From the NCBI RefSeq assembly GCF_900091595.1, contig NZ_FMCW01000001.1, forward strand, positions 95,706-159,705: 64,000 bases of DNA, in the 5' to 3' direction. The translations under genes and the position numbers were made by a program. Below are positions 47,811 through 64,000 of the stretch, one piece after another. Each line of letters opens with the position of its first letter. Positions within the stretch are counted from its first letter, which is position 1. The notes beneath the pieces are model-generated. The model did no database searches. It was not told the DNA's origin and saw only the letters and a program-made list of their open reading frames with translations. The stretch comes from Micromonospora haikouensis (GTDB taxonomy: Bacteria > Actinomycetota > Actinomycetes > Mycobacteriales > Micromonosporaceae).

Positions 47811-48979
47811 TGCGGCACTCCGTTGTGCAGGACCTGGCGGATCAGGGGAACACCGGGCCGGTAGGCCAGGTGCAGGTGGGACGGGGCGTCGAGGACGATC
47901 AGGTCGGCCCGCGCGCCGGGCCGCAGCACCCCGACGTCGTCGCGGCGCAGCGCCCGCGCGCCCCCGGCGGTCGCGGCCCACACGGCCTCCGCCGGGGTCA
48001 TCCGCATCTCGCGTACGGCGAGCGCGACGCAGAACGGCATCGACGAGGTGTACGACGACCCGGGGTTGCAGTCGGTGGCCAGCGCCACGGTCGCGCCTGC
48101 GTCGAGCAGCCGCCGCGCGTCCGGGTACGGCGACCGGGTGGAGAACTCCGCCCCCGGCAGCAGGGTGGCCACGGTCGGCGAGCCGGCGAGCGCGTCGACG
48201 TCGGCGTCGGACAGGTGGGTGCAGTGGTCGACGCTGGCCGCGCCCAGCTCCACCCCGAGCTGCACCCCCGGGCCGGGGCCGAGCTGGTTGGCGTGCAGCC
48301 GCACCCCCAGCCCGGCGGCCTGCCCGACGGTGAGGATCGCCCGCGCGTGGTCGGCGTCGAACGCGCCCCGCTCGCAGAACACGTCGACCCAGCGGGCGTA
48401 CGGCGCGGCCGCGGCGAGCATCGGCCCGCAGACCAGGCCCACGTAGTCGTCGGGGCGGCCCGCGTACTCGGCGGGGACGACGTGCGCGCCGAGGAACGTC
48501 GTCTCGGCGGTCACCTCGGCGGCGATCCGGAGCGACCGGGCCTCGTCGGCGACGGTGAGGCCGTACCCGCTCTTGGTCTCGATCGTGGTGGTGCCCTGCC
48601 GCATCGCCTCGCCGACCAGTCGGCGCACGGTGGCCCGCAGTTGGCCGTCGGAGGCGGCGCGGGTCGCGCCGACCGTGGCGCGGATGCCCCCGCCCGTGTA
48701 CGGCTCGCCGGCCATCCGGGCGGCGAACTCGGCGGCCCGGTCCCCGGCGAAGACCAGGTGGGCGTGGCTGTCCACGAAGCCCGGCAGGACCGCGCCGCCC
48801 TGCGCGTCGACGCGGCGGTCGGCGGCGGGCGCGTAGCGCGCCGGCCCGACCCAGGCGACCCGCCCGTCCTCGATCAGCACGGCGGCGTCGCGGCGCAGGC
48901 CCAGCGGGCCGCCGTCGCCGGTGCCGGCCACGTTGGTGACCAGCTCGCCGATGTCGTCGACCAGCAGGCTGCCGATCAC
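47798..48979 (-). CDS. hutI: imidazolonepropionase
   Basis: A 393-residue amidohydrolase-fold enzyme with zinc ligands in [17 protein letters not shown] (about 67-80), H in [11 protein letters not shown] (about 175), H in LHANQLG and the catalytic D in [19 protein letters not shown] (about 315). It opens 4-imidazolone-5-propanoate to N-formimidoylglutamate. The start is GTG 48979, four-base overlap (GTGA) with the stop of hutF, which indicates translational coupling. Confidence 0.95.
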
Positions 48980-50364
48980 CGGGTCACCGCCCCGATGGCG
49001 GCGCGCAGCGCGGCCGGCACGTCCACGGTCAGGTGCCGCCCGTCGGCGACGACCTGCCGGCCGTCGACGACCACCGAGGCGACGTCGGCGGCGGTCGCCG
49101 CGAAGAACGCACCGACCGGCGGCACCCCGGCGGTGCGGACGCTGTCCAGGCGCACGGTCACCAGGTCGGCGCGGGCCCCGACGGCGAGCCGGCCGGCGTC
49201 GGCCCAGCCCAGCGCGGCGTGCCCGGCCACGGTCGCGGCGGTCAGCAGCTCCGCCGGGGCGAAGTGCCCCCGGCGGCGGGTGCGCAGCCGCTCGTCCAGC
49301 TCCACCGCCCGCGCCTCCTCGAACGGGTCGACGACGGCGTGGCTGTCGCTGCCCAGGCTCAGGGCGATGCCCGCGTCGGCGAGCCGCCGCGCCGGCCCGA
49401 TCCCGTCGGCCAGGTCCCGTTCCGTGGTCGGGCAGAGGCAGACGCCGGTGCCGGCGTCGCCGAGCAGCGTCACGTCGGCGCTGGTGAGGTGGGTGGCGTG
49501 CACGGCGGTCGTGGCCGGGGTGAGCGCCCCCCGGTCGGCCAGCAGCCGGGTCGGGGTGACCCCGTGCGCGGCCCGGCAGGCGTCGTTCTCGGCCGGCTGC
49601 TCGGACAGGTGCACGTGCAGCGGCACCCCCTCGTTGCGGGCGGCGAAGGTGGCGATCTGGTCGGCCGGCACCGCCCGCACCGAGTGCAGCGCCGCCCCGA
49701 TCCGGGCGTGCGGCCGGCCCTGTCGCGCGGCGGTCAGCCGGTCGTGCCGGTCGGACCACCCGTCGACGTCGCCGTCGCCGAAGCGCCGCTGTGGGCCGGC
49801 GAGCGGCGCGCCGTCCACGGTGGCGGTCAGGTAGAGCGTGTCGAGCAGGGTGAGCCGGACGCCGGCCTGGGCGGCGGCCTCGATCAGGGCCGCGCCCATC
49901 GCGTTCGGGTCGGCGTAGCGGGCCCCGTCGGGGCCGTGGTGCAGGTAGTGGAACTCGCCGACGCAGGTGATCCCCGCGAGGGCCATCTCGGCGTACGCGG
50001 CGCGGGCCAGGGCCAGGTAGCTGTCCGGGTCGAGGCGGGCGGCCACCTCGTACATCCGGTCGCGCCAGCTCCAGAAGTCGCCCCGCCCGCCCTGTCCGCC
50101 CGGCCCGCCGTCCGCGCCCTGGGTGCGCCCGCGCAGGGCGCGGTGGAACGCGTGCGAGTGGGCGTTGGCCAGGCCGGGCAGGGTCAGCCCGGGCAGCCGT
50201 ACGGCGTCGGCCAGCACCTCGACCCCGGCGGTGGGCGCGCCGCCGGCCGACAGCGGGGCGACGGCGGTGAGCCGGCCGCCGTCGGCCTCGATCAGCACGT
50301 CGGCGGTGGGCCCGGGCCGGTCGGGCAGCCACGCGTACTCGGCGAGCCAGCGGGTGGCGGTCAT
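48976..50364 (-). CDS. hutF: N-formimidoylglutamate deiminase
   Basis: A 462-residue amidohydrolase. [22 protein letters not shown] holds the first zinc histidines, [31 protein letters not shown] the late histidine and [21 protein letters not shown] the catalytic aspartate; the ARTERDL-like stretch is typical of HutF. It converts N-formimidoylglutamate to N-formylglutamate and ammonia, so the five-enzyme route is used and a deformylase must follow. ATG 50364 lies 16 bases after the M20 amidohydrolase stop. Confidence 0.93.
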
Positions 50365-50380
50365 CGTCGCGCCTGTCCGG

Positions 50381-51622
50381 TCATCGGCACGTCAGCTCCG
50401 TCAGCACCCGGGCCAGGGCGGTCACCCCGGCGGCGCAGTCGGCGTCGGTGGCCGCCTCGGCGGGGGAGTGCGACACCCCGGTCGGGTTGCGCACGAACAG
50501 CATCGCCGTGGGCAGGTGCCCGGCGAGGACGCCCGCGTCGTGGCCCGCCCCGGTGGGCAGCACCGGCGCGCCGAGCAGCGCGGCGAGCCGCCCGCCGAGG
50601 TCGCCGTCGAAGCCGACCAGCGGCGTCGCCGACTCCTCGGTCACCGTCACCTCCGTGCCGTCGCGGCCGGCCCGCTCGGCGGCCTTCGCCCGGACCGCCT
50701 CGACCAGGCCGGCGACGGTCTCCGGGTCGGCGGCGCGGGCGTCCAGCCAGCCGGTCACCCGCGCCGGGATCGCGTTGGTGGCGTTCGGCTCGACCCGGAC
50801 CCGGCCCACCGTGGCGTGCGCGCCGCGCAGCCGGGCCTCCTTGTTGGCCGCGAGCACCGTGAACGCGTACGTGAGCATGGGGTCGCGGCGGTCGGCCATC
50901 CGGGTCGTACCGGCGTGGTTGCCCTCGCCGTGGAAGTCGAAGCGCCAGCGGCCGTGCGGCCAGATGGCGCTGGCGACCGCGACGGGCGCGCCCTGGTCGA
51001 CCAGCGCGCGGCCCTGCTCGACGTGCAGCTCCACGAAGCACGACCAGCCGCCGAGCAGGTCGGGGCGGGGGCCCGCCGGCCGGTCGCCCAGCGCCTCGGC
51101 CAGGCTCACCCCGTCGGCGTCGCGCAGCCCGGCCGCGCGGTCGGCGTCGAGCGCGCCGGTGAGCAGCCTCGACCCCAGGCAGGGTACGCCGAACCGGGCC
51201 CCCTCCTCCTCGGCGAACGCGGCCACCACGAGGGGCCGGGACGGGGTGACCCCGGCGGCGCGCAGCTCGTCCACGGCGAGGAACGCGCTGACGATGCCGA
51301 GCGGCCCGTCGTACGCGCCGCCGTGCGGCACCGAGTCGAAGTGGCTGCCCGTCAGCACCGCCTGCGGCGCGTCGGGCTCGCCCCAGCGGGCGAAGAGGTT
51401 GCCGTTGCCGTCCACGGTCACCGGCATGCCCCGGCGGTCGGCCTGCGCCCGGAACCAGTCGCGCAGCGCCAGCTCGGGGGCCGTGAACGCGTACCGCAGG
51501 TAGCCGCCGCTGCCGGCGTCACGCCCGATCGGCGCGATCTCGTCCCACAGCTCCCGGAACCGCCGCTCGGTGCCGTGGTGGTGGTTAGGAAGGGGCCCTT
51601 CACCTGCAGAATGCGTTAACAA
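50381..51622 (-). CDS. M20 family amidohydrolase (allantoate amidohydrolase-like), probable N-formylglutamate hydrolase of the hut pathway
   Basis: A protein of up to 413 residues with M20 metal ligands: H in [14 protein letters not shown] in [10 protein letters not shown] in [10 protein letters not shown] in [14 protein letters not shown] and H in VSHSPAE. The dimerisation region has [11 protein letters not shown]. Families named allantoate amidohydrolase or N-carbamoyl amino acid hydrolase share this. No hutG exists in the operon, so it may remove formate from N-formylglutamate. Start problem: no ATG or GTG lies near the family N-terminus ([20 protein letters not shown]); the only candidate is TTG 51622 inside repeat copy C, preceded by AGGAGGGG, and this would add about 18 repeat-encoded residues. 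Confidence 0.82.
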
Positions 51623-51637
51623 GGGGCCCCTCCTTGC
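51584..51637 (-). repeat. 54-bp palindromic element, copy C (ends hutU and precedes the amidohydrolase)
   Basis: In the gene sense: GCAAGGAGGGGCCCC, core TTGTTAACGCATTCTGC, then GAAGGGCCCCTTCCTAAC. It encodes the last residues (QGGAPC) and the stop codon (TAA at 51618-51616) of hutU. In the next frame it is open ([15 protein letters not shown]) into the amidohydrolase. Confidence 0.85.
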
Positions 51638-53313
51638 GCCTCGGCCATCGGGACGCGGACGCCGGTGCGGTCGGCGACCTCGCGGGCGGCGTCGTAGCCG
51701 GCGTCGACGTGCCGGATGACGCCCATCGCCGGGTCGTTGGTGAGCACCCGTTCGATCTTCTGCCCGGCCAGGGCGGTGCCGTCGGCGACGCAGACCTGGC
51801 CGGCGTGGATGGACCGGCCGATGCCGACCCCGCCGCCGTGGTGGATGGACACCCAGGACGCCCCGCTGGCCGTGTTGACCAGCGCGTTGAGCAGCGGCCA
51901 GTCGGCGATCGCGTCGGAGCCGTCGGCCATCGCCTCGGTCTCCCGGTAGGGGCTGGCGACGCTGCCGCAGTCGAGGTGGTCGCGGCCGATCACCACCGGC
52001 GCGGACAGCTCGCCGGAAGCGACCATCTCGTTGAACCGCACCCCGGCGCGGTCGCGCTCGCCGTAGCCGAGCCAGCAGATCCGCGCCGGCAGGCCCTGGA
52101 ACGCGACCCGCTCGCCGGCCAGCCGGATCCACCGGGCCAGCGACTCGTTCTCGGGGAACAGGTCGAGGATCGCCCGGTCGGTGGCGGCGATGTCGGCCGG
52201 GTCGCCGGAGAGCGCCGCCCAGCGGAACGGGCCCTTGCCCTCGCAGAACAGCGGCCGGATGTACGCCGGCACGAAGCCGGGGAAGTCGAACGCCCGCTCG
52301 TACCCGCCGAGGCGCGCCTCGCCCCGGATCGAGTTGCCGTAGTCGAAGACCTCCGCGCCGGCGTCGAGGAAGCCGACCATCGCCTCCACGTGCCTCGCCA
52401 TCGACGCCCGTGCCCGGTCGGTGAACTCGGCCGGCTTCGCCTTCGCGTAGTCGGGCGCGTCGGCCAGCTCCACCCCCTCCGGCACGTACGACAGCGGGTC
52501 GTGCGCGCTGGTCTGGTCGGTGACGACGTCGATCGCCACGCCCCGGCGCAGCAGCTCGGGGAAGACCGTGGCCGCGTTGCCGACGACGCCGACCGACAGC
52601 GCCCGGCGGTCCCGCTTCGCGGCGAGCACCCGCTCGACGGCGTCGTCGAGGGAGTCGGCGACCTCGTCGAGGTAGCGGTCGCGCACCCGGCGGTCCAGCC
52701 GGGACCGGTCGACGTCGACGATCAGGCACGCGCCGCCGTTCATGGTGACCGCGAGGGGCTGCGCCCCGCCCATCCCCCCGCAGCCGGCGGTGAGGGTCAG
52801 CGTGCCGGCGAGGGTGCCGTCTCCGTGCTGCTGCCCGTCGCCGCGGGCGCCGGCGAACTTCGCGGCGACGGCGGCGAACGTCTCGTAGGTGCCCTGGAGG
52901 ATGCCCTGGGTGCCGATGTAGATCCACGAGCCGGCCGTCATCTGCCCGTACATGGTCAGGCCGAGGGACTCCAGGCGGCGGAACTCCGGCCAGGTGGCCC
53001 AGTCGCCGACCAGGTTGGAGTTGGCCAGCAGCACCCGGGGGGCCCACTCGTGGGTGCGCAGGACCCCGACCGGTCGGCCGGACTGCACCAGCATCGTCTC
53101 GTCGTCGCGCAGGTCGGTGAGCGTGCGCACCAGCGCGTGGTACGACGGCCAGTCCCGCGCCGCCCGCCCGGTGCCGCCGTAGACGACCAGGTCGTCGGGG
53201 CACTCGGCCACCTCCGGGTCGAGGTTGTTCATCAGCATCCGCAGGGCGGCCTCCTGCGGCCACCCCCGGGCGGTGAGCGCGGCCCCCCGGGCGGCGCGGA
53301 CGGGCTGGGGCAT
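51616..53313 (-). CDS. hutU: urocanate hydratase
   Basis: A 565-residue urocanase: an N-terminal region beginning with [32 protein letters not shown], the NAD-binding [17 protein letters not shown] (about 175), the catalytic cysteine in [17 protein letters not shown] (about 430) and [21 protein letters not shown]+ acts as electrophile in adding water to urocanate. Its last residues (QGGAPC) and stop codon come from the repeat, so the native end has been replaced. ATG start 53313 lies 13 bases after the rpiR-type regulator stop. Confidence 0.95.
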
Positions 53314-53326
53314 CTCGTCTCTCCTC

Positions 53327-54184
53327 TCAGCCGAGGAACAACTGGCGGCGGGCGGCGGAGGACTCGAACGCCTCCAGCCGGCGCTGGGTCTCGGCGGGCG
53401 CGGCGTCGCAGATGGCCTGAAGGACCACCATCGCCAGGGTCATCGGTGCGGTGTGCAGGTCGAACACGAGGTCGGTGCCGACGGCGGCCGGGAGCACCAC
53501 CTCGGCGTGCTCGGTCGCGGGGCTGACCGGCGAGTCGGTGATGGCCACCACCGTCAGCCCGGCGGCCCGCGCCTCGGCCAGCGCGTCGAGGGTCTCCCGG
53601 GGGTAGCGGGGCAGCACGAAGGCCAGCAGGGCGGTCGCGCCGGCCGCCGCGGCCTGCTCCAGGCGGTCGGCGAGCAGGCTGCCGCCGTCGTCGAGCACCC
53701 GCACGTCGGGGTGCACCTTGGCGGCGAAGAACGCGAAGTACGCCGCCAGCGGCGCGGCGGCCCGCAGCCCGAGCACCGGCAGGGGGCGGCTCGCGGCGAG
53801 CAGCTTGCCGACGGCGGCGATCCGGTCGGTGTCGGCAAGCTCGCCGGCCAGTCGCTCCAGGTTGGCCACCTCGGTGCCGACGGCGCGTTGCAGTTCGTTG
53901 CCGCCGCCGGAGGGCTCGCCGGCACCGGCGGCGCCGGTCAGCTCCCGCAGCCGGCGGCGCAGCGCCGGGTAGCCGTCGTGGCCGAGCGCCACGGCGAACC
54001 GGGTCACCGACGGCTGGCTGACGCCGGCCAGCTCGGCCACCTCGGCCGCCGAGAGGTACGCCGCGGCGGCGGCGTGCTGCACCAGGCTGTGCGCGATGCG
54101 CCGCTGCGTCGGGGTGAGCCGGACGCCCTGGAAGAGGTCGAGCACCCGGTCGGCGGACGCCCCGACCGTGCCTCCTTCATTCAT
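53327..54184 (-). CDS. RpiR/MurR family transcriptional regulator of the hut operon
   Basis: A 285-residue protein with an N-terminal RpiR helix-turn-helix ([41 protein letters not shown], about residues 16-57) and a C-terminal SIS domain ([46 protein letters not shown]). SIS domains usually bind phosphosugars; here, as first gene of the hut operon, the ligand is probably a pathway intermediate. ATG 54184 follows a TAGGGT -10 by six bases. The dyad TGAAAGTTTTCA fills the spacer between its -10 and -35, so it is probably self-repressing. Confidence 0.88.
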
Positions 54185-54289: not shown

Positions 54290-56311
54290 ATGCAGCCGGA
54301 AGGTCCGTACAGGTTCACCGAGGCGTCGGGCGTCTGCCAGGTCGGCAGCGCCTGGTGGGCGGTGGACAGTCAGGACCGGCTGCTGACCGTCGCCGTGCTG
54401 GAGGGCGCCGCCGCCGCCGACCAGCCCTGGCGGGAGGCGTTCACCAACGCGGCGGACACCCTCGCGCAGACCCCGGGCGGCCCCCGCTACGTCAACGCCG
54501 ACTTCGCCGCGGCCCGCCCCTGGGTGGCCTATCCGGCCGAGGTGGAGAACGCCGCCGACAAGCTCTTCGGCCTGCTCGGCATGCCGCTTCGCTCGCCCCA
54601 CCTGGAGCCCGTCGGCGACCTGGCCACCCGGGCGATGCCGGCGACCACCCCGGTCGCCCCGGCCACCCCGACCTCGGGCGTGCCCAGCTCGGCCGTGCCC
54701 GCCTCCGGCCAGCCCGCCTCGGGCGTCCCTGCCTCGGGCGTCCCTGCCTCGGGCGTCCCGGCTTCCGGCGTCCCCGCCTCGGGCGTCCCGATCTCGGGCC
54801 CGCCCGGCTCGGGGATCCCCAGCTCCGGGGTGCCCGTGTCCGGGGCGCCCAGCTCGGGGGCGCCGCCGGTCTGGGCGGCGCACGCCACCGGTTCGCCGGT
54901 CGTCGCGACCCCACCGGCGGACCCGCCGGCCGCCCACCCCGGGCCCGCCGACCCCGGGCCGCCGCACGACCCGTTCGCGTCGCCCGCCCGGCGCATCCAG
55001 CCGTCCCCGCCGCCCCGCCCGCGCACCGGGCTGCGGCTCGGCGTCGCGGCGCTGGCCCTGGCCGTGCTCGCCGCGGGCGGCGGGCTCGCCGTCTGGGCCG
55101 TCACCCGGGGCGCGGACGCCCCGCCGCCGGCCGGCCCCGCCGGGGCGTTCCCGACCGCCACCCCCGCCGCCGGCTTCCGCCCGTGGAGCCAGGCGGCCCC
55201 CTACAGCGCGCAGGAACGGGCGCTCGCCACCGCCGCGCCGGGGCTCGTCTTCGTCGAGGCCGTCTTCAACGGATACCTGCGCGACGGGCGGACCGGGGCG
55301 CTGCTCAACCCGACGCCCGTCACGTTCCAGCGGCGGTGCAGCGGCTTCGTGGTCGACCCCGCCGGGCACGTGCTCACCAACGGCCAGTGCGTCGCCCCCG
55401 ACGAGCCGGTCGCCCGGGAGCGGGCCCTCTACACCCTCGGCCGCATCCTCGTCGCCGGGAAGAAGCTCACCCCGGGCGCGCTCGACGGCTGGGTCCGGTC
55501 GCGGACGGCCGGCACCCGGTTCACCGGCAAGGAACCGGACCGCCCCCCGTCGAGCCAGGTCTTCGTGCAGCTCAACCAGGCCACCGGCGGGCTGACCGGC
55601 ACCCCCGCGATCGCCGGCGAGGTGGTCCGCACCCGCGCCGCCGACGCCGGGGACCTGGCCCTGGTCAAGGTCGCCCGGCCCGACCTGCCCGGCGTCGAGC
55701 TGGGCGACGCCGCCGCGCTGACGCCGGGCGGCGTGGTGGTGGTCGCCGGCTACCACACCGTCGACGCCGACTTCCGCGACGCCACCTACACGCTGCGCTC
55801 GAAGACCGTGCAGGTCACCGCCACCGACACCGGCCAGGGCGCCGTGCCGCTGTTCCGGATCGGCGACGACATCGGCATCTACTCCCACGGCGGCGTCGCC
55901 CTCGACCCGGCCGGCCGGGTCGTCGGCGTGCTCACCAACGACCGGTCCGGGGCGGGCGGGGCCAACCGGGCCGTCGTGCCGGTCACCGCCGCCCGGGAGC
56001 TGCTCGCCGAGGCCGGGGTCGCGCCCACGCTCGGCGACGCCGACCGGCTCTACCGGCGCGGGCTCGACGCGTACTTCACCGGACGGGACGCCACGGCGGT
56101 GTCCCAACTGGACGCCGTTGCCCGGGGCGGCAACGGCAACGAGCTGGCCGAGGCGTACCGGCGGAGCGCGGCCGACCGGCAGCAGCTCACGGCGGCGGCA
56201 CCGGAGCAGTCCAACCTGCCCACGGTGCTGTTCTCGGGGCTCGGCGGCGCCCTGCTCGCCACGCTCGCGATCGGCGTGGTGCTGCTGGCGAGGCGCCGAT
56301 CGCGCCGCTGA
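54290..56311 (+). CDS. membrane-anchored trypsin-like pseudo-protease
   Basis: A 673-residue protein. Residues 1-110 are an N-terminal cytoplasmic domain (YRFTEASGVCQVGSAWWAVD). About 123-195 are tandem S-G-V-P-A pentapeptides (15-base units, about 54671-54865). A transmembrane helix lies at about 245-268, a trypsin/DegP-like domain at about 310-575 outside, and a second helix at about 643-665. Catalytic residues are altered: the histidine of LTNAH is Q (LTNGQCV, about 361), the aspartate remains (DLALVKV, about 454), and the GNSGG serine is lost (YSHGGVALD, about 531). It is therefore probably a binding or scaffold protein. ATG 54290; GAGGAG upstream. Confidence 0.75.
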   Translation: MQPEGPYRFTEASGVCQVGSAWWAVDSQDRLLTVAVLEGAAAADQPWREAFTNAADTLAQTPGGPRYVNADFAAARPWVAYPAEVENAADKLFGLLGMPLRSPHLEPVGDLATRAMPATTPVAPATPTSGVPSSAVPASGQPASGVPASGVPASGVPASGVPASGVPISGPPGSGIPSSGVPVSGAPSSGAPPVWAAHATGSPVVATPPADPPAAHPGPADPGPPHDPFASPARRIQPSPPPRPRTGLRLGVAALALAVLAAGGGLAVWAVTRGADAPPPAGPAGAFPTATPAAGFRPWSQAAPYSAQERALATAAPGLVFVEAVFNGYLRDGRTGALLNPTPVTFQRRCSGFVVDPAGHVLTNGQCVAPDEPVARERALYTLGRILVAGKKLTPGALDGWVRSRTAGTRFTGKEPDRPPSSQVFVQLNQATGGLTGTPAIAGEVVRTRAADAGDLALVKVARPDLPGVELGDAAALTPGGVVVVAGYHTVDADFRDATYTLRSKTVQVTATDTGQGAVPLFRIGDDIGIYSHGGVALDPAGRVVGVLTNDRSGAGGANRAVVPVTAARELLAEAGVAPTLGDADRLYRRGLDAYFTGRDATAVSQLDAVARGGNGNELAEAYRRSAADRQQLTAAAPEQSNLPTVLFSGLGGALLATLAIGVVLLARRRSRR

Positions 56312-56389: not shown

Positions 56390-57274
56390 TCAGCGGGTCG
56401 AGGCGTCCCGGCCCCACGCGCCGCGCGGGTGCCGGCGGGCGCGCAGCGCGGCGGCGAGCGTGACGGCCACGTAGACCACCGCGGCCGGCGCGAGCCAGGG
56501 GCGGGGCAGCACCACGTCGCGCAGCCAGGACGACGGGACCGACGGCCGGATCCCGGCATGCGAGGCGCGCAGCATGGCGTTGCCGGCCCGCACCCGGGCC
56601 AGCGTGCGGACCAGGTCCCGCAGCGTCCGGGGGGTCTGCACGAGCGACGCCACCGACGACACCTCGCGCTTCTCGGCCGAGGCGAACCGGGAGTCCAGGA
56701 AGAGGTCGTCGGCGATCTCGGCCGGGAACCGGTCGAAGCGCTCCCGTCCCGCCGCCGACACGCCCAGCACGCCCCGGCCGAACAGCGCGTCCGCGAAGAT
56801 CGGCAACCGGGTGTTGATCGCGTAGTAGGCGCGCACCAGCAGCGGCCGGCCGGTGGTGACCATCTCCCGGCGGGGCGTCACGGCCAGCGGCGGGTCCACC
56901 GGGGCGGTCAGCGTGGCGGCCATCGCCGGCAGCGCGCCGGGGCCGAGGACCACGTCGGCGTCCAGATAGAACCGGGGGAAGCCGCGCACCACCGCGTCCC
57001 CGGCGTTCAGCGCGCCCGCCTTGCCCGCCTCGGCCAGCTCCACCACGCGTACGCCGGGCCGCGCGGCGGCCACCCGCGCCGTGTCGTCGGTGCAGCCGTT
57101 GGCCACCACGACGACGTCCAGCTCGACGCCGGCGTCGATGCCCGCGTCGGCGAGCAGCGCGTCCAGGCAGCCGCCGATGACGTTCGCCTCGTCGTGGGCG
57201 GCGATCACCACACCGATCGGGCCGGGGCGGGGTGGGGGGCTCGACACGGCTGACCAGCTTGCCGGACGGGACAC
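56390..57274 (-). CDS. GT2 family glycosyltransferase
   Basis: A 294-residue GT-A enzyme: IGVVIAAHDEANVIGGCLDALL, VVVVANGCTDDTA, EAGKAGALNAGDAVV and the metal motif FYLDADVVLG (DxD, about residue 105). A hydrophobic helix at about 255-275 anchors the C-terminus. It transfers a sugar from a nucleotide donor to a lipid-linked or polymer acceptor. It is divergent from the polysaccharide operon (about 120 bases between starts). GTG 57274 or an in-frame GTG at 57247 could be the start. Confidence 0.82.
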   Translation of the reverse strand: MSRPASWSAVSSPPPRPGPIGVVIAAHDEANVIGGCLDALLADAGIDAGVELDVVVVANGCTDDTARVAAARPGVRVVELAEAGKAGALNAGDAVVRGFPRFYLDADVVLGPGALPAMAATLTAPVDPPLAVTPRREMVTTGRPLLVRAYYAINTRLPIFADALFGRGVLGVSAAGRERFDRFPAEIADDLFLDSRFASAEKREVSSVASLVQTPRTLRDLVRTLARVRAGNAMLRASHAGIRPSVPSSWLRDVVLPRPWLAPAAVVYVAVTLAAALRARRHPRGAWGRDASTR

Positions 57275-57394: not shown

Positions 57395-58870
57395 GTGGAC
57401 AGTCCCGCGCCGCTCACCGCCCCCGGCACCCGGCTCGGGGGCGGCGCTCCGGAGCGGCTCGACCGGGCCGCCGGCCACCTCGCCACCGCCGCGCTGGCGC
57501 TGATCGCGGTCAAGCCCCTGCTCGACATCGGCGAGCGGGACGCGGGCGGCGGCGTCGACCTGGGCGTCCTGCTCAGCGCCGTCGGGGCGGGCTGCATGCT
57601 GGCGGCCCTCACGGCGGCGGTCCTCGCGGCCCGCCGGCTGCCGCCGCGCCCCGTGCAGGCGATGCTGCTCGCCCTCGCCCTGCTGCTGGTCGTCTCCGGA
57701 TTCAGCTACCTGGCGGCCGGGCCGCGCGCCGACCTGCTGGCCCTGTTCGACATCCGTCGCTACCCCATCTACGGCCCGCGGCTCGACCCCGCCACGGCGA
57801 TCCCCGCCGAGGCGGTGCGCCTGCTGGTCAGCTTCGCCCCGGTGGCGCTGATCGGGATGGCGCTGATGCGCCCGGCCCGGTTCCCCGTCCGCCGCCTGGC
57901 CGTGGTGGCGGCCGTCGTGCTGGCCGGCGCGGTCGGCCATTGCGCGCTGGCCTGGCTCCAGGTCGCCGGCGTCGTGCCCTACTCGTTCTACTTCGAGCTG
58001 CCGGGCCAGAAGATCGGCCGGGCGTCGGGGGGCTACTACCACCCGATGTCGCTCGGGCGGCTGCTGATGTTCTCGGTCTTCCTCTGCTATGTGCTCGGCG
58101 ACCGGCTGCGCCTGCCCGGCGACCGGCTGCGCCTGACCCCGCTGCGCCGGTACGCGCTGGTCGGCCTCTTCGTGGCCACCGGCGCGGTGTCGCTGCACCG
58201 GCTCACCATCGGCTGCCTGCTGGTGATCGTGGCCGCCTTCGAGGCGCGGCGGCTGGGGGCCCTGCGGGCCACGCTGCGCACCCGCGTCGGCCGGCGGCGG
58301 GTCGTGGCCGTGGCCGCCGGCCTGGTCGCGGCCGGCGGGGTCGCCGTCGCGCTCGCGGGCGACGCCGTCCGGGAGCGGGCCGGGGTGGCGCTGACGGAGG
58401 TCGGCTCGCTGGACGTGCGCTCCGACACGTTCATGCACGGCCGGGGTGCCATCTGGAACGACGTCGCCCGCGTCCTGCACCGGTCCACGCCGGACGTCTG
58501 GCTCTTCGGGTTCGGCTACGAGCCGTGGGACATGCACAACGACCTGCTGCGCGTCCTCGTCGTCTGGGGCGTCGTCGGCCTCGTCGCGGTCGTCGGGACC
58601 GTCGCCGGCCTCCACGTCGTCGTCCGGCGGCGGTGCGCCGATCCGGCGCAGCGCTGGGCGCTCGGCGTGCTGTACGCGGTCTTCGTGCTCTTCGGGCTCA
58701 CGCAGAAGCCGATGGCGTACCCGTACTTCATGTGGCTGTTCCTCTTCGGGCAGCTGGTGATCCTGTCGCTGGGCGGCGCGCCGGGCGACGACACGGTCAC
58801 GGCCGATGTCGAACGGGGGGAGGAGGGGCGGCTCGATGAGGCATCCACTGCCGGCGTCCGTCCAGGGTGA
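57395..58870 (+). CDS. O-antigen ligase/polymerase-like membrane protein
   Basis: A 491-residue membrane protein of about eleven helices. The large loop between helices includes GQKIGRASGGYYHPMSLGRLLMF (about residue 210), and GRGAIWNDVARVLHRSTPDVWLFGFGYEPWDMHNDLLRVLVVWGVVGL (about 350-395) is the Wzy/WaaL-type segment with the conserved HN...L. Such proteins polymerise or ligate undecaprenyl-linked glycan repeats on the outer face of the membrane. GTG 57395 is chosen; the ORF is open upstream. It overlaps the next gene by 35 bases and opens a five-gene overlapping operon. Confidence 0.8.
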   Translation: MDSPAPLTAPGTRLGGGAPERLDRAAGHLATAALALIAVKPLLDIGERDAGGGVDLGVLLSAVGAGCMLAALTAAVLAARRLPPRPVQAMLLALALLLVVSGFSYLAAGPRADLLALFDIRRYPIYGPRLDPATAIPAEAVRLLVSFAPVALIGMALMRPARFPVRRLAVVAAVVLAGAVGHCALAWLQVAGVVPYSFYFELPGQKIGRASGGYYHPMSLGRLLMFSVFLCYVLGDRLRLPGDRLRLTPLRRYALVGLFVATGAVSLHRLTIGCLLVIVAAFEARRLGALRATLRTRVGRRRVVAVAAGLVAAGGVAVALAGDAVRERAGVALTEVGSLDVRSDTFMHGRGAIWNDVARVLHRSTPDVWLFGFGYEPWDMHNDLLRVLVVWGVVGLVAVVGTVAGLHVVVRRRCADPAQRWALGVLYAVFVLFGLTQKPMAYPYFMWLFLFGQLVILSLGGAPGDDTVTADVERGEEGRLDEASTAGVRPG

Positions 58871-59696
58871 GCAGGACGCGGACGGGGCACCGCACGCGGG
58901 CGACGACGCGGCCGTGGTGCCGACGTTCTCGGTCTGCATCGTGGTCCGCGACCGCGCCGAACTGCTGATCGACGCCGTGCGCAGCGTGCTCGCCAACCAT
59001 CACCGCGACTTCGAGCTGGTCGTCGTCGACGACGGCTCGGCCGTCCCGGTCACCCGGGTCCTGGCGGAGGCGGGCGTGTCCGCCGACCGGCGGGTCCGGG
59101 TGCTCAGCCTGCCGCCGAGCGGCATCGCCCGCGCCCGCAACGTCGCCCTGCGCGCCGCGACCGGCCGCTACATCACGGTGCTGGACTCCGACGACGAGCT
59201 CTCCGCCGACGCGCTGGGCCGGCTGCACGACCTGCTCACCGCCACCGGCGGCGCCTGGGTCTACGTCGACTACCACGAGGTGCGCGGCGACGCCTCCCGG
59301 CGCATCCGGCTGCCCGAATACACTTCGGCGCGCACCATGCTGCTGGGCGTGCTGACCCGCCCCCGGCTGCCGTTCAAGCACTCCGGCACCACCATCGACC
59401 GGCGGGTGCTGGAGCACATCGGCGGGTACGACGAGAGCTTCCGCCTCTTCGAGGACGTGGAGCTGATGCTGCGGGCGCTGCGCGCCGGCGTGCACCCCCG
59501 GCACCTGCCCCACCCGGTGGTCCGGTTCCGCCGGCACGACGGCAACATCACCCGGGGCCGCCTCGGCGGGCTGGTCTTCTGGTTCCGGCTGGTCGACATG
59601 TACCGCCCGTCGCGGGCGCCCGGCGTGGCGCTGGGCATCAAGGCGCTGCGCACCCTCAGCGAGACGGGCAAGTGGCTTGTCAGCCTCGGCCGTTGA
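58836..59696 (+). CDS. GT2 family glycosyltransferase
   Basis: A 286-residue GT-A enzyme without membrane helices: FSVCIVVRDRAELLIDAVRSVL, LVVVDDGSAVPV, RARNVALRAATGRYITVLDSDDEL (DxD-type DSDD, about 125) and GYDESFRLFEDVELMLRAL (the acceptor-side E/D base). It adds one sugar to the lipid-linked repeat. ATG 58836 follows GGAGGAGGGG and lies inside the preceding gene's end, indicating coupled translation. Confidence 0.85.
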   Translation: MRHPLPASVQGEQDADGAPHAGDDAAVVPTFSVCIVVRDRAELLIDAVRSVLANHHRDFELVVVDDGSAVPVTRVLAEAGVSADRRVRVLSLPPSGIARARNVALRAATGRYITVLDSDDELSADALGRLHDLLTATGGAWVYVDYHEVRGDASRRIRLPEYTSARTMLLGVLTRPRLPFKHSGTTIDRRVLEHIGGYDESFRLFEDVELMLRALRAGVHPRHLPHPVVRFRRHDGNITRGRLGGLVFWFRLVDMYRPSRAPGVALGIKALRTLSETGKWLVSLGR

Positions 59697-61161
59697 CGCC
59701 GGGCGCGGCGGCGAACCGCGGCGCGGGCGGGAGCCGGGCTCCGGCCCCGGGCCGCACCCGAAGCCCGGGCGCGGGCCGGGAGAACGGCCCGGGCGCGGGC
59801 GGGCAGCCACCATGCTGGCCCAGGTCGGCCTGCTGGGGCTGAGCCAGGCCGGCGTCACCGTCGCCGCGTTCGGCAGCCAGGTCCTGCTCGCCCGCACGCT
59901 CACCCGGGAGGACTTCGGCTCGTTCACCGCCGTGCTGGCCGTGGTGTCGTTGACCGCTCCGGTGGCCGTCTTCGGCGTGTCCGAGCTGTGGTTGCAGGTG
60001 TTCGGGCAGGAGGGCGCGCGGGCGTACCGCTGGGTGGGGCCGTCGCTGCGGCTGGCCGGCGCGGTATGCGCGGCGCTGCTGCTCGGCGTGCTGGCCTGGA
60101 GCGCCGCCGAGCTGCCCGACACCACGGCGGCGGCGGTGCGGGCCCTGCTCGCCACCGTCGTGGTGGCCCAGGCGGCGCTCGCCCTGGCCGGTGCGGTGCG
60201 GCAGCTGCGCGGCGACTACCGGGGGCTGTCCGCCCTCCAGCTGGCCCCCCACCTGGGCCGGGTGCTGGTCACCGGCGCGGTCTGGGCGGCCGGGCTGTCG
60301 GTCGTCGCTGCGGCGGCCGGGTACGCGGTCGTCGCCGTGGCGACGGTCGCCGCCTGCCTGCTGGCCTCCCGCGAGTTCCGGCGCGGCGCGATGCCGCTGG
60401 AGGGCCACCCGGCCCCCACCGCCCGCGCCACCGCCCCCGCCGCCCCCGCCGCCCCCGCGGACGTCGACACCGGCCCCCGGCCGCGCGAGCTGCTGGGGGC
60501 GGCCACCCCGTACGTGCTCGGCAACGTCTGCTACCTGCTCGGCATCCACTTCGGCACGGTGCTCGCCGCCGAGCTGCTCGGCGGGGCGGAGGCGGCCCTG
60601 CTCGCCGTGCCGATGGCCGTGCTCACCGCCGTCTACCTGGTGCCCCGGGTCGTCTACCAGCAGTATCTGCTGGGCAAGCTGCACCGCTGGGCCGGCTCGG
60701 ACGCGGAGGCGGTGCTGCTGGCGTACCGCTGGGGCAGCGCCGGGATGGTCGCGCTCGGCGCGGTCGTCGCGGCGGCGGTGGCGGTCGGCGGCCTGGTGGC
60801 CCTGCCGCTGGTGTTCGGCCCGGCATACCGCGACGCCGCGCCGGTGCTGGCGGTGCTGGCGCTGGCGGTGCCGTTCCGGTTCGGCGGCGCCGCCGTGGCC
60901 GCGCTGCTGACCAGCGGCGGGCTGCTGCGCCGCAAGGTGATGTACCAGGCCGTGGGCGCCGTGGTGCTGCTTGCGGCGCTGGCGGTGGCCGTCCCGGCGT
61001 GGGGCGTGCGCGGTGCCGCCGGGGCGACCGTGCTGGCGGAGGCGGTACTCTGCTGCCTGCTCTGGGTCGCCGCCCGGCGGGGCGTCGTGGGCGACGCCCC
61101 GCTGCCCACCTGGCGCGACCTGCGCAGGCGCCTGAGCAGGGAGGCTCCCCGTGCGTCCTGA
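59677..61161 (+). CDS. polysaccharide flippase (Wzx/MOP superfamily)
   Basis: A 494-residue membrane protein of 12-14 helices. It begins AQVGLLGLSQAGVTVAAFGSQVLLARTLTREDFGSFTAVLAVVSLTA, the MOP-type first bundle (LAR.L..EdFG), and RELLGAATPYVLGNVCYLLGIHFGTVLAAELLGG opens the second. It would flip undecaprenyl-linked repeats to the outer face for the polymerase. A proline/alanine segment lies at about 245-262. TTG 59677 overlaps the GT2 stop; ATG 59812 is an alternative that loses a basic N-terminus of 45 residues. The stop overlaps the next start by 11 bases. Confidence 0.8.
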   Translation: MSASAVDAGRGGEPRRGREPGSGPGPHPKPGRGPGERPGRGRAATMLAQVGLLGLSQAGVTVAAFGSQVLLARTLTREDFGSFTAVLAVVSLTAPVAVFGVSELWLQVFGQEGARAYRWVGPSLRLAGAVCAALLLGVLAWSAAELPDTTAAAVRALLATVVVAQAALALAGAVRQLRGDYRGLSALQLAPHLGRVLVTGAVWAAGLSVVAAAAGYAVVAVATVAACLLASREFRRGAMPLEGHPAPTARATAPAAPAAPADVDTGPRPRELLGAATPYVLGNVCYLLGIHFGTVLAAELLGGAEAALLAVPMAVLTAVYLVPRVVYQQYLLGKLHRWAGSDAEAVLLAYRWGSAGMVALGAVVAAAVAVGGLVALPLVFGPAYRDAAPVLAVLALAVPFRFGGAAVAALLTSGGLLRRKVMYQAVGAVVLLAALAVAVPAWGVRGAAGATVLAEAVLCCLLWVAARRGVVGDAPLPTWRDLRRRLSREAPRAS

Positions 61162-62320
61162 ACCGGCACCCACCCGTCCCGCGCCGGCCGCCGTGGCCCG
61201 CCGGCCCCTGGTCGTCGGCTACTACGGCATGGAGAACGTCGGCGACAACGCGTTCTGCATCGTCATGGACTGGGCGACGCGGGTCTACTGGGGAGCCGAG
61301 GAGCCCGTCTTCGCCGCACCACCCATGGTGGACCTGCCGCCGGAGCGCACCGGCATGGACCCGCGCTGGTACCGCTCGCGGGGCACCGCCGACCGGGCCG
61401 GCTGGGTGCTCAACAAGGCCGCCCTGCTGCGCCGCTCCACCATGCTGGTCTTCGGCGGCGGGTCGGTGTTCCGCGAGATGGGGCCGCTGAGCGAGAAGAA
61501 GGTCTTCTCGCTGTTCTCCGGGGTGTCCGGGCACCCGATGGCCGCCGTCGGGGTCTCCGTCGGCCCGTTCGTCTCCGCCGCCTCCGAGCGCCGGCTGCTG
61601 CGCGTCCTGCGCCGGGTCGCCTTCATCGGCGTACGCGACATCGCCTCCGCCGAGGTCCTCGAACGGGCCGGCTACCCGGGCGTGCTGGTGCCCGCCGGTG
61701 ACCTCGCCGGCCTGCTGCCCGAGGCGCTCGGCGAGCCGGTCCCGCCGCGCCGGCCGCGCCCCACCGGCCGGGCCCGCCTCGGCGTGACCCTGCTCGGCGT
61801 CGACCACGAGGCCGCCGACGCCGACGTGCGCCACCGCGAGGACACCCTGGTCGAGGGGGTACGCGCGCTGGTGCGCGCCGAGCCCGTCGACGTCACCGTG
61901 TTCGTGTTCAACACCCACCCGCTGCACGGCGACGAGCGGGTCAGCGAGCGGCTGCGGGCCGCCGTCGCGGGGCACTGCGACGTGCGGGTCGTCACCGCCC
62001 GCGACGGCGTGCGGGCCTGCTGGGACGAGATGAAACGCTGCGACCTCGGGCTGCACATGCGGCTGCACGGGGCCGTCTTCGCCTACCTGGCGGGGGTGCC
62101 GTTCACCCTCGTGCCGTACCAGCAGAAGTGCGACGACTTCCTCGACGAGATCGGGCAGCCGGCGGCGCTGCGCACGCCCCGGGTGCCCGGCGACGCGGCG
62201 GCGGTGGCCCGCACGCTGACCGGCCTGCTCACCACCGAGGAGGTGCCGGAGCTGCCCCGCGCGATCTACGCCGAGCGCGCCCGGCGCAACTTCACCGCCG
62301 CCCCCTGGGCCCGTGGGTGA
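61151..62320 (+). CDS. polysaccharide pyruvyl transferase family protein
   Basis: A 389-residue protein of the pyruvyltransferase fold (PF04230): VVGYYGMENVGDNAFCIVMDWA (about 23-44), MLVFGGGSVFREMGPLS (about 100), PMAAVGVSVGPF and GLHMRLHGAVFAYLAGVPFTLVPYQQKCDDFLDEIG near the C-terminus. Members attach pyruvate ketals from phosphoenolpyruvate to exopolysaccharide or teichuronic sugars, giving acidic glycans (CsaB, PssM type). The substrate sugar is unknown. It overlaps both neighbours (11 and 8 bases). Confidence 0.82.
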   Translation: MRPEPAPTRPAPAAVARRPLVVGYYGMENVGDNAFCIVMDWATRVYWGAEEPVFAAPPMVDLPPERTGMDPRWYRSRGTADRAGWVLNKAALLRRSTMLVFGGGSVFREMGPLSEKKVFSLFSGVSGHPMAAVGVSVGPFVSAASERRLLRVLRRVAFIGVRDIASAEVLERAGYPGVLVPAGDLAGLLPEALGEPVPPRRPRPTGRARLGVTLLGVDHEAADADVRHREDTLVEGVRALVRAEPVDVTVFVFNTHPLHGDERVSERLRAAVAGHCDVRVVTARDGVRACWDEMKRCDLGLHMRLHGAVFAYLAGVPFTLVPYQQKCDDFLDEIGQPAALRTPRVPGDAAAVARTLTGLLTTEEVPELPRAIYAERARRNFTAAPWARG

Positions 62321-63545
62321 CGGCGGCCGGAGCCTCGATCGGGCGTCGCTGCCCCACCCTGACGCCGCCGCCGGGGCCGTGGCCGGTGCGCCCACCCGAC
62401 CCCGGCCGGTTCCGGCGGTGACCCGGCCGCGCCCGCTCACCGCCGCCGGCCTGCTGGTGGCGGCGGCGCTGGTCGTCGCCACCGTCCTGCTCGCCGGCAT
62501 GGCCGCCGTCGGCACCGGCCGCGCCGGGGACCCGGGCGGGGCCGGGGCCGCCCGGTCCGCCCCGGCCTACACCCCGTCGGCGGCCGGCACGCTGCGCGGC
62601 CTCGCCCCGGCCGGGACGCTGATCGGCACGGCCGTCGACCCGAGGGGCCTGAACCTCGACCCCGCCTACCCGGGGGTCCTCGCCGCCGAGTTCAACGCGG
62701 TCACCGCCGAGAACGCGATGAAGTGGCGCAACCTGGAGCCCTCGCCCGGCGTGTACGCCTGGGCGGGCGGCGACCAGATCGTCGACCTGGCCCACCGCAA
62801 CGGCCAGGCCGTCTACGGCCACACCCTGGTCTGGCACAACGACGTGCCGGACTGGGTGTCCCCGGACTGGCCGGCGCAGCGGCTGCGGGAGGTGCTGCGC
62901 CGGCACGTGACCGCCGTCGTCGCGCACTACCGGGGCCGGGTGTGGGCCTGGGACGTGGTCAACGAGGTGCTCGCCGAGGACGGCTCCCTGCGCGACACCC
63001 TCTGGCTGCGCAAGCTCGGCCCCGGCTACGTCGCCGACGCGTTCCGCTGGGCCCGGCAGGCCGACCCCGACGCCAGGCTGTTCGTCAACGAGTACGGCAC
63101 CGAGGGGCGGACCGCGAAGGCCGACGCGCTGCTGGACCTGGTGCGGCGGCTGCGGGCCGACGGCGTACCGGTCGACGGGGTGGGCTTCCAGGGGCACCTG
63201 GACGCCGAGCGTCCGCCCGACGACGTCCGGGGCAACCTGCGCCGCTTCGCCGCGCTGGGCGTGCGCGTCGCCGTCACCGAGCTGGACGTGCGGGTGCGGC
63301 TCCCCGCGACGGCGGAGGGGCTGCGCCGCCAGGCCGCCGTGTACCGGGAGGTGCTGCGCGCCTGCCTGGACGTGGCCGCCTGCGCGTCGGTCACCGTGTG
63401 GGGCTTCACCGACGCCCGCAGCTGGATCCCCGGCTACCACCGCGGCTTCGGCGCGGCCTGCCTCTTCGACGCCGACTTCCGGCCGAAGCCGGCCCACGCG
63501 GCGCTGCTCGACGAGCTGGCGGCCCGGCGGCGCACCGGCGGCTGA
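62313..63545 (+). CDS. membrane-anchored GH10 endo-beta-1,4-glycanase (xylanase family)
   Basis: A 410-residue protein with a cytoplasmic N-terminus, one signal-anchor helix at about 43-66 (LLVAAALVVATVLLAG) and an extracellular GH10 domain (about 95-405). The acid/base glutamate is in WAWDVVNEV (about 216), the nucleophile in AVTELDV (about 323); EFNAVTAENAMKW, GHTLVWHND and a terminal SVTVWGFTDARSW are GH10 signatures. There is no binding module. GTG 62313 overlaps the pyruvyltransferase stop by eight bases, so it is translated with the polysaccharide assembly genes rather than as a stand-alone plant-wall enzyme. Likely role: cutting a beta-1,4-linked (xylan-like) own polymer. Confidence 0.88.
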   Translation: MGDGGRSLDRASLPHPDAAAGAVAGAPTRPRPVPAVTRPRPLTAAGLLVAAALVVATVLLAGMAAVGTGRAGDPGGAGAARSAPAYTPSAAGTLRGLAPAGTLIGTAVDPRGLNLDPAYPGVLAAEFNAVTAENAMKWRNLEPSPGVYAWAGGDQIVDLAHRNGQAVYGHTLVWHNDVPDWVSPDWPAQRLREVLRRHVTAVVAHYRGRVWAWDVVNEVLAEDGSLRDTLWLRKLGPGYVADAFRWARQADPDARLFVNEYGTEGRTAKADALLDLVRRLRADGVPVDGVGFQGHLDAERPPDDVRGNLRRFAALGVRVAVTELDVRVRLPATAEGLRRQAAVYREVLRACLDVAACASVTVWGFTDARSWIPGYHRGFGAACLFDADFRPKPAHAALLDELAARRRTGG

Positions 63546-63573: not shown

Positions 63574-64000
63574 TCAGTCCCACCAGAACGACCAGTTCTG
63601 CATGCCCCGGATCTCCTGCGCGTACGCGGCCAGCGAGCCGCTGCCCTGCCGGACGTTGTCGGGGCAGAAGGCGAGGTGCTCGGCGGCGACGCGCAGGGCG
63701 TGCTCGGGCGTGGTGGGCGGGGCGGCCACGCTGAGGTGGAGGGTGTCGAAGCCGACCCCGATCACCAGCGCGCCGAAGCGCTCCGCCCAGCTGCGCAGCA
63801 CCGCCGTGAGCTGGCCGCCGGAGTCGAGGTGGTGCACCGGCCCCGTCCAGCCGGTGGCGGCCGGCGCGTCCGCGCCGCCGGCGGCCGGCACCAGCCCCAG
63901 CCGGGTCTCCCCGAGGTATTCGGTGTCGCTGAGCAGGAAGTCCACCAGGTCGTCGGCGACGTCGCCGACCGGTTCCTCCGGCTCGCCGGGCGCGGCCAGG
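63574..64000 (-). CDS. DUF4253 domain protein, 5'-truncated by the window edge
   Basis: The last 142 codons or so of a minus-strand gene; the frame is open through base 64000, so the N-terminus is outside. The visible part has LRSWAERFGALVIGVGFDTLHLSVAAPP, ALRVAAEHLAFCPDNVRQG and an end YAQEIRGMQNWSFWWD, the DUF4253 family (small cytoplasmic proteins of unknown function). It is convergent with the GH10 gene, with 28 bases between stops. Confidence 0.75.
   Translation of the reverse strand, partial: LAAPGEPEEPVGDVADDLVDFLLSDTEYLGETRLGLVPAAGGADAPAATGWTGPVHHLDSGGQLTAVLRSWAERFGALVIGVGFDTLHLSVAAPPTTPEHALRVAAEHLAFCPDNVRQGSGSLAAYAQEIRGMQNWSFWWD

What the first reader, a model, noticed from the sequence alone, without database searches (positions are those of the whole stretch)
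57395..63545. Polysaccharide assembly operon translationally coupled to a membrane-anchored GH10 glycanase
Five genes overlap by 35, 20, 11 and 8 bases: Wzy/ligase-like protein, GT2, Wzx-like flippase, pyruvyl transferase-like enzyme and a type II membrane-anchored GH10 with both catalytic glutamates and no binding module. GH10 enzymes are normally secreted plant xylan degraders. Cellulose operons carry a dedicated glucanase (BcsZ), which gives a precedent for a trimming enzyme. Inference: the cell makes a pyruvylated glycan with beta-1,4-xylosyl or similar links, and the GH10 edits or releases it.
Basis: partly seen in the sequence, partly recalled or inferred. Interest (0 to 1): 0.75.

Follow-up and report, generated by a model that had tools for sequence, protein, structure and literature searches.

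The report
Switchable glycan cassette with built-in glycanase
Some soil bacteria of the genus Micromonospora carry an exchangeable gene set, predicted to build a surface sugar polymer, that includes a relative of plant-xylan-cutting enzymes inherited together with the other genes; this enzyme is predicted to sit in the cell membrane and likely trims the bacterium's own polymer.

Summary
In detail: five + strand genes overlap by 35, 20, 11 and 8 nt, ending in a GH10 with intact catalytic residues, one predicted transmembrane helix and no binding module. In 14 related loci the PVT-GH10 overlap is kept (4-nt GTGA in 11, 8 nt in 2, unreadable in 1). The GH10 is not a stray xylanase: its orthologues (21 of 151 Micromonospora genomes) all sit in this locus, group apart from the genome's four other GH10s, and recur in the same kind of locus in Catellatospora and two unnamed genera. 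The locus behaves like a serotype cassette: GT2, GH10 and a trypsin-like protease diverge together, the flanking hut, initiating-transferase and LCP genes much less so. Against an obligatory role: 9 of 30 loci with the same GT2 lack GH10, and deleting a GH10 of a Sphingomonas EPS cluster had no visible effect. Most likely it is an accessory, outward-facing editor of the cell's own glycan. A xylan-like, pyruvylated product is a guess; the genome encodes a UDP-xylose synthase, but that is nearly genus-wide. Glycanases in Wzx/Wzy clusters are known, so this is a new variant of a known kind.

The parts
54290..56311 (+). Trypsin-like serine protease, two hydrophobic segments (250-268 and C-terminal 646-664); diverges together with the cassette
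   Evidence: PF13365 42.3 bits; hydropathy; distance to GH10 r = 0.91, 18 loci
56390..57274 (-). Divergent GT2 glycosyltransferase with one hydrophobic segment; hit in the 13 group-A loci readable there, in Catellatospora and Rhizocola
   Evidence: PF00535 48 bits
57395..58870 (+). Wzy/WaaL-fold membrane glycan polymerase or ligase, 491 aa, 9 hydrophobic segments
58836..59696 (+). GT2 glycosyltransferase
   Evidence: PF00535 86.9 bits
59677..61161 (+). Wzx-like flippase, 10 hydrophobic segments
   Evidence: PF13440 21 bits, under the cut-off of 23
61151..62320 (+). Polysaccharide pyruvyl transferase-family protein
   Evidence: PF04230 79 bits; TIGR03609 CsaB 100.4 bits, under its cut-off of 213.1
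62313..63545 (+). GH10 glycanase, predicted type II membrane anchor
   Evidence: PF00331 345.5 bits; AF2 pLDDT 88.9; XynAS9 fold match
62442..62513 (+). Predicted transmembrane helix of the GH10 (residues 44-67)
62964..62966 (+). Codon of E218, GH10 acid/base glutamate (role by family knowledge)
   Evidence: E in 92 of 92 aligned GH10s
63279..63281 (+). Codon of E323, GH10 nucleophile glutamate (role by family knowledge)
   Evidence: E in 92 of 92 aligned GH10s

Best explanation
The GH10 gene is a co-inherited member of an exchangeable gene cassette predicted to make a cell-surface glycan by a Wzx/Wzy-type route, and its product is predicted to be held in the cytoplasmic membrane facing outward, where it likely cuts the cell's own newly exported glycan. 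Steps shown: overlapping genes, conserved overlaps, fixed position, common divergence with GT2, polymerase and protease, intact catalytic residues. Steps inferred: a lipid-linked repeat unit is started by a polyprenyl-phosphate sugar transferase (encoded next door in relatives, by a paralogue elsewhere here), extended by the two GT2s, pyruvylated, flipped by the Wzx-like protein and polymerised by the WaaL-fold protein; a convergent LCP enzyme would tie it to peptidoglycan. The GH10, matched to that cassette's glycan, would then trim, release or turn over chains. It is accessory: some loci do without it.
For: Orthologues in 21 of 151 genomes, all 21 in this locus. PVT>GH10 4-nt overlap in 11 of 14. 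Named genomes: 14 of 14 nearest relatives in the locus; of the other 66 loci, 63 show none of the glycan-assembly markers in the DNA held (exceptions L145, L158, and L122). Catellatospora has the cassette away from hutU; in Rhizocola the GH10 lies about 12 kb from it. GH10 distances track GT2 (r = 0.88, 20 loci) and the protease (0.91, 18) better than PGT (0.44, 15), LCP (0.48, 20) or hutU (0.65, 12). Long N-terminal tail plus a strongly hydrophobic helix in most operon-group entries, against short classical signal peptides in 15 other relatives printed. dN/dS 0.12-0.24 in five pairs. LCP gene beside the locus in 30 of 30. Published glycanases that act on the glycan of a neighbouring cluster in the same family of bacteria (PMC12691653).
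Against: 9 of 30 loci with the orthologous GT2 lack GH10 and keep GT2, PGT and LCP. Deleting the GH10 prmN of the Sphingomonas promonan cluster had no visible effect (PMC11340318). Operon-clade support is SH-aLRT 93, under 95, and the Rhizocola row outside the operon falls inside it. Within group A alone PGT also tracks GH10 (r = 0.88, 8 loci). W174 is lost in 3 of 21 operon-group rows, so not all copies need be fully xylanase-like. No transcript, activity or glycan data.
Confidence: 0.6

Rival explanations
1. The GH10 is an ordinary xylan-degrading enzyme, cell-anchored, that was captured into the operon and still acts on plant xylan.
For: Closest solved structures are xylanases XynAS9 and Cex; E133, N134, K137, H170, W174 agree with XynAS9 in the window protein; an expansin gene lies nearby.
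Against: One branch tied to this locus, with conserved gene overlap; the genome has four other GH10s, each with 124-150 residues after the matched stretch; the expansin stays where GH10 is absent, in 7 of 9 loci, so it belongs to the site.
Confidence: 0.13
2. The GH10 works as a transglycosidase: being of a retaining family, it moves cut chains onto another surface acceptor instead of hydrolysing them.
For: GH10 is a retaining family (recalled); the operon group differs from most relatives at 220 (L, 21 of 21; 220 is two residues after E218) and 262 (G, 19 of 21; three after the invariant N259), with the catalytic set unchanged.
Against: An LCP ligase gene already flanks the locus in 30 of 30 loci; the place of 220 and 262 in the cleft was not measured.
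Confidence: 0.1
3. The GH10 acts on the cassette's glycan, but only late, to dissolve a matrix and free spores or cells, as GimA and GimB do in Actinoplanes.
For: Same-family precedent: GimA and GimB (GH5) hydrolyse the sporangium matrix, and the imp cluster that makes it lies beside gimB (PMC12691653).
Against: GH10 overlaps the pyruvyl transferase gene, which implies production with the assembly proteins, while gimA and gimB are separately switched on at dehiscence and carry signal peptides; that paper found no GimA/GimB homologues in Micromonospora.
Confidence: 0.1
4. The GH10 attacks glycans of competitors or of an unrelated envelope polymer, and its linkage to the cassette is incidental.
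For: 9 of 30 loci do without it.
Against: Its distances track the cassette genes and it recurs in the cassette in several genera.
Confidence: 0.07

Closest known systems
Promonan cluster of Sphingomonas sp. LM7 with GH10 PrmN and GH16 PrmQ (PMC11340318)
   Same: A gene annotated GH10 inside a Wzx/Wzy glycan cluster.
   Different: Gram-negative exporter with Wza and Wzz; prmN deletion had no visible effect; GH16 prmQ deletion gave rugose colonies. Sequence relation of PrmN to this GH10 not tested here.
Actinoplanes missouriensis imp cluster with adjacent gimB (GH5), and wps-1 with WpsE (GH26) (PMC12691653, PMC13390465)
   Same: Same bacterial family; a glycanase encoded in or beside a Wzx/Wzy-type cluster; GimA and GimB were shown to hydrolyse the matrix.
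   Different: Other GH families, GimA/GimB with signal peptides; linked to sporangia; the words GH10 and pyruvyl did not occur in the main texts searched.
BcsZ endoglucanase of cellulose operons (recalled)
   Same: A trimming glycanase in the operon of the glycan's own synthesis.
   Different: GH8, single-protein synthase pathway (recalled); the operon here has separate polymerase and flippase genes.
GH10 xylanases of known structure, e.g. XynAS9 (3wuf) and Cex (2exo)
   Same: Fold (target TM-score 0.96) and catalytic residues, 46-48% identity.
   Different: Here a predicted membrane anchor, no binding module, fixed place in a glycan cassette.

Membership tests
Glycoside hydrolase family 10 | PF00331 above curated cut-off | tested here: met
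   345.5 bits against 22.1
Glycoside hydrolase family 10 | Two catalytic glutamates and conserved N, H, Q, W residues around them | tested here: met
   E218, E323, N217, H170, Q293, H295, W363, W371 the same in 92 of 92 aligned rows
Glycoside hydrolase family 10 | TIM-barrel fold of the family | tested here: met
   Foldseek 3wuf target TM 0.96, rmsd 1.2
Endo-beta-1,4-xylanase (activity) | Cleaves beta-1,4-xylan | not testable with these tools
   Needs an assay
Wzx/Wzy-dependent glycan pathway | Wzy polymerase | tested here: inconclusive
Wzx/Wzy-dependent glycan pathway | Wzx flippase | tested here: inconclusive
   PF13440 21 bits, cut-off 23; 10 hydrophobic segments
Wzx/Wzy-dependent glycan pathway | Initiating polyprenyl-phosphate sugar transferase | tested here: inconclusive
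   Directly after GH10 in 8 of 14 A and 7 of 7 B loci, but not beside the window's copy; three PGT matches elsewhere in the genome, best 61% identity
Wzx/Wzy-dependent glycan pathway | Wzz chain-length regulator in the cluster | tested here: not met
   Three PF02706 hits in the genome, none on the window's contig
CsaB pyruvyl transferase (TIGR03609) | Equivalog cut-off 213.1 bits | tested here: not met
   100.4 bits; member of the wider PF04230 only
Dedicated cluster glycanase like BcsZ or GimB | Acts on the glycan made by its own cluster | not testable with these tools
   Only co-inheritance and position shown

The most novel reading that the evidence does not exclude
Micromonosporaceae carry a serotype-like switching locus that makes a pyruvylated, xylan-like wall glycan, and cassettes bring their own matched GH10 that edits or re-attaches the chains: a bacterium making, and cutting with a xylanase, its own xylan-type polymer.
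Probability: 0.18. Interest if true: 0.82.

Novelty: new variant of a known kind. Interest (0 to 1): 0.58.

Why it matters
GH10 genes are named xylanases and read as signs of biomass degradation. Here one group of GH10 is tied to predicted glycan synthesis, so such a reading would overstate plant degradation in these bacteria. If the enzyme cuts the cell's own glycan, its products would give a way into the structure of a surface polymer for which I found no description, and the swapped cassettes are natural variants with which to map which polymerase, glycosyltransferase and glycanase belong together. Xylose is a diagnostic sugar of Micromonospora cells (PMC11960110, passages); which genes place it there can be tested from the UDP-xylose synthase and cassette genes named here.

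Tried and rejected
Stray xylanase: rejected as the main reading after mapping 80 named loci and 20 family-level loci. Expansin as proof of a plant-wall island: it stays at the site in 7 of 9 loci without GH10, so it is not specific. The cassette as source of the genus's diagnostic xylose: a UDP-glucuronate decarboxylase is encoded in the genome (313.9 bits to UXS1, next family 133.9), and 149 of 151 genomes have a match at E 1.4e-186 or better (G090 2.7e-37 and G137 2.8e-109 are weaker), whereas the cassette genes are in 21-30 of 151, so the cassette cannot be the sole source. NF008872 (ArnA-type) found no UXS above its cut-off. My gene caller first missed the LCP gene beyond the window's end; a direct search found it in the three closest loci, so my note that those loci lack LCP is superseded, as is my note that the G104 copy is broken (it reads N in part). 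The pyruvyl transferase has no solved relative at E 0.01. Searches for prior reports; among the listings I looked at, only the promonan paper, read in part, joined a GH10 with a Wzx/Wzy cluster (other listed papers were not opened); the library holds open-licence papers only. The distance comparisons use different numbers of loci and near relatives, so they rank linkage and are not a formal test.
Full report

2. The GH10. E218, E323 and the other family residues are intact. The model (pLDDT 88.9) shows a helix at 44-67, a low-confidence linker to about residue 88 and a confident barrel; the closest solved folds are the xylanases XynAS9 and Cex, 46-48% identity. Of the 50 nearest proteins printed, most have a strongly hydrophobic helix, usually after a long tail and without a typical cleavage site; at least 8 entries lack the segment or start late. 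The 15 other relatives printed (Streptomyces and others) have short, classical signal peptides (read by eye and hydropathy, no signal-peptide program). The genome's other four GH10 genes each have 124-150 residues after the matched stretch; this one has none.

3. Conservation in the genus. In 151 genomes (150 drawn plus the window's) the GH10 orthologue (57% identity or more) is in 21: 20 full rows plus G104, whose copy is partly unreadable. The close pyruvyl transferase (75% or more) is in 14, and in 14 of 14 the GH10 follows it: group A. PVT>GH10 overlap: 4 nt (GTGA) in 11, 8 nt in 2, unreadable in 1; GT2>Wzx 20 nt and Wzx>PVT 11 nt in 14 of 14; Wzy>GT2 4 nt in 11, 35 nt in 2, 16-nt gap in 1. 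In the other 7 (group B) the GH10 lies at the same kind of site, downstream of an orthologous GT2 and of a protein with a sub-threshold Wzy_C match, and directly upstream of an initiating sugar-phosphate transferase (PGT; PF02397, TIGR03025 401.6 bits over 295.55); in 6 of 7 an opposite-strand set with flippase and GT4 (with epimerase, dehydratase and nucleotidyltransferase genes in 5) lies between GT2 and GH10. The PGT follows GH10 in 8 of 14 A loci and is absent there in 6, including the window's. A convergent LCP gene lies beside the locus in 14 of 14 A, 7 of 7 B and 9 of 9 C loci.

4. Copies without GH10. The orthologous GT2 (54% identity or more) is in 30 genomes: the 21 above and 9 more. 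In those 9 (group C) the same site reads hutU, protease, GT2, PGT, LCP with no GH10 match. These genomes carry another Wzy and flippase set beside a hutH-type gene, with a pyruvyl transferase in 6 of the 9; G077 has that set and also a GH10 at the main site. So GH10 is accessory.

5. Beyond the genus. A scan of named genomes gave 80 loci (the best of 482 relatives). The 14 nearest (13 named Micromonospora or Verrucosispora, one Catellatospora bangladeshensis) all have GH10 in the assembly locus. Of the other 66, two (Dactylosporangium, Virgisporangium) have GH10 beside a GT4, Wzy and flippase set; one (Rhizocola) has the cassette about 12 kb away; 63 show none of the glycan-assembly markers in the DNA held, up to 10 kb each side and less at contig ends (G191 equated with Rhizocola by equal contig length). 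The markers come from this locus, so unrelated glycan genes would be missed. In a draw of 250 family genomes the 14 with the best GH10 hits comprise 13 in the locus, two of them in further unnamed genera, and Rhizocola; of the 20 regions fetched there, 4 had GH10 in the locus, 3 had it beside a related set, 1 was Rhizocola and 12 had none of the glycan-assembly markers. Catellatospora holds GT2m, Wzy, GT2, Wzx, PVT, GH10, PGT and a protease in a 21 kb stretch without hutU.

6. Tree and co-divergence. In a quick tree of 92 GH10s the 21 operon rows (copies from 19 of the 21 genomes above, one further Micromonospora, Catellatospora) fall on one side of a branch (SH-aLRT 93) with the Rhizocola row inside; the genome's four other GH10s form another group (98). 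The GT2 tree puts the A rows with Catellatospora on one branch (98), whereas the PGT tree mixes A, B and C (at least 4 changes of the A label forced by well-supported branches). Mean distances A-A against A-C are 0.22/0.43 for GT2 and 0.37/0.51 for the protease, but 0.13/0.16 for PGT, 0.24/0.26 for LCP, 0.07/0.07 for hutU; GH10 correlates with GT2 at 0.88 and protease at 0.91, with PGT 0.44, LCP 0.48, hutU 0.65. Within A the contrast is weaker: GT2 0.90, Wzy 0.93, protease 0.91, PVT 0.85, PGT 0.88 (8 loci), LCP 0.77, hutU 0.64 (11 loci). The simplest reading, an inference, is a serotype-like locus whose middle is exchanged as a block and whose flanks are not. dN/dS of GH10 is 0.12-0.24 in five close pairs, like its neighbours (0.07-0.35).

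7. Residues. The operon group has L220 (21 of 21) where 48 of 69 others have F, and G262 (19 of 21) where 61 of 69 have N; W174 is G in 3 of 21; N134 is S in 1 of 21. This fits a kept catalytic centre with a changed neighbourhood; the cleft was not measured and the substrate cannot be read from it.

8. Substrate. Nothing here shows the glycan's sugars. The genome encodes a UDP-xylose synthase upstream of three LCP-like genes (tblastn), and the enzyme is in 149 of 151 genomes, in line with xylose as a diagnostic whole-cell sugar (PMC11960110, passages read). That makes a xylose-containing glycan possible, not shown, and the cassette is too rare to be the general source.

9. Known cases. Glycanases in or beside Wzx/Wzy clusters are known: PrmQ (GH16) and PrmN (GH10) in Sphingomonas (PMC11340318, passages and Discussion read; prmN deletion without visible effect), GimB (GH5, with its paralogue GimA; single deletions without phenotype, the double mutant failing to release spores) and WpsE (GH26) in Actinoplanes (PMC12691653, passages incl. 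abstract; PMC13390465, abstract, section 5 and first part of the Discussion). What I did not find in print is a GH10 group tied to such a cassette, its exchange as part of it, and the predicted membrane anchor. I therefore rate it a new variant of a known kind.

Noticed in passing
window 54290-56311 (and the same site in relatives): A membrane-associated (predicted) trypsin-like protease upstream diverges in step with the glycan cassette (r = 0.91 with GH10, 18 loci), as if it were part of it; its role is unknown.
   Followed up: partly
G000 contig C18, L236 10081-14974: UDP-xylose synthase directly upstream of three LCP-like glycopolymer transferase genes, the synthase found in 149 of 151 genomes: a candidate for the diagnostic wall xylose of Micromonospora.
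   Followed up: partly
L074 14230-15261 (beyond the window's end) and relatives: An EXLX1-type expansin gene a few kb downstream of the locus, kept in 7 of 9 loci where GH10 is absent.
   Followed up: partly
L095-L104: A second Wzy-flippase(-pyruvyl transferase) set beside a hutH-type gene in 10 genomes, paralogous to the window's cassette and without GH10.
   Followed up: partly
window 63574-64000 (-) and L074 11280-12080: A DUF4253 gene stands after GH10 in the window's genome, where relatives have the initiating transferase; in G006 a two-component system stands there.
   Followed up: no
window 46272-54184: Aromatic amino acid lyase, amidohydrolases, M20 peptidase, urocanase and RpiR-type regulator: a histidine-use (hut) block (name recalled), stable neighbour of the switching site.
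   Followed up: no
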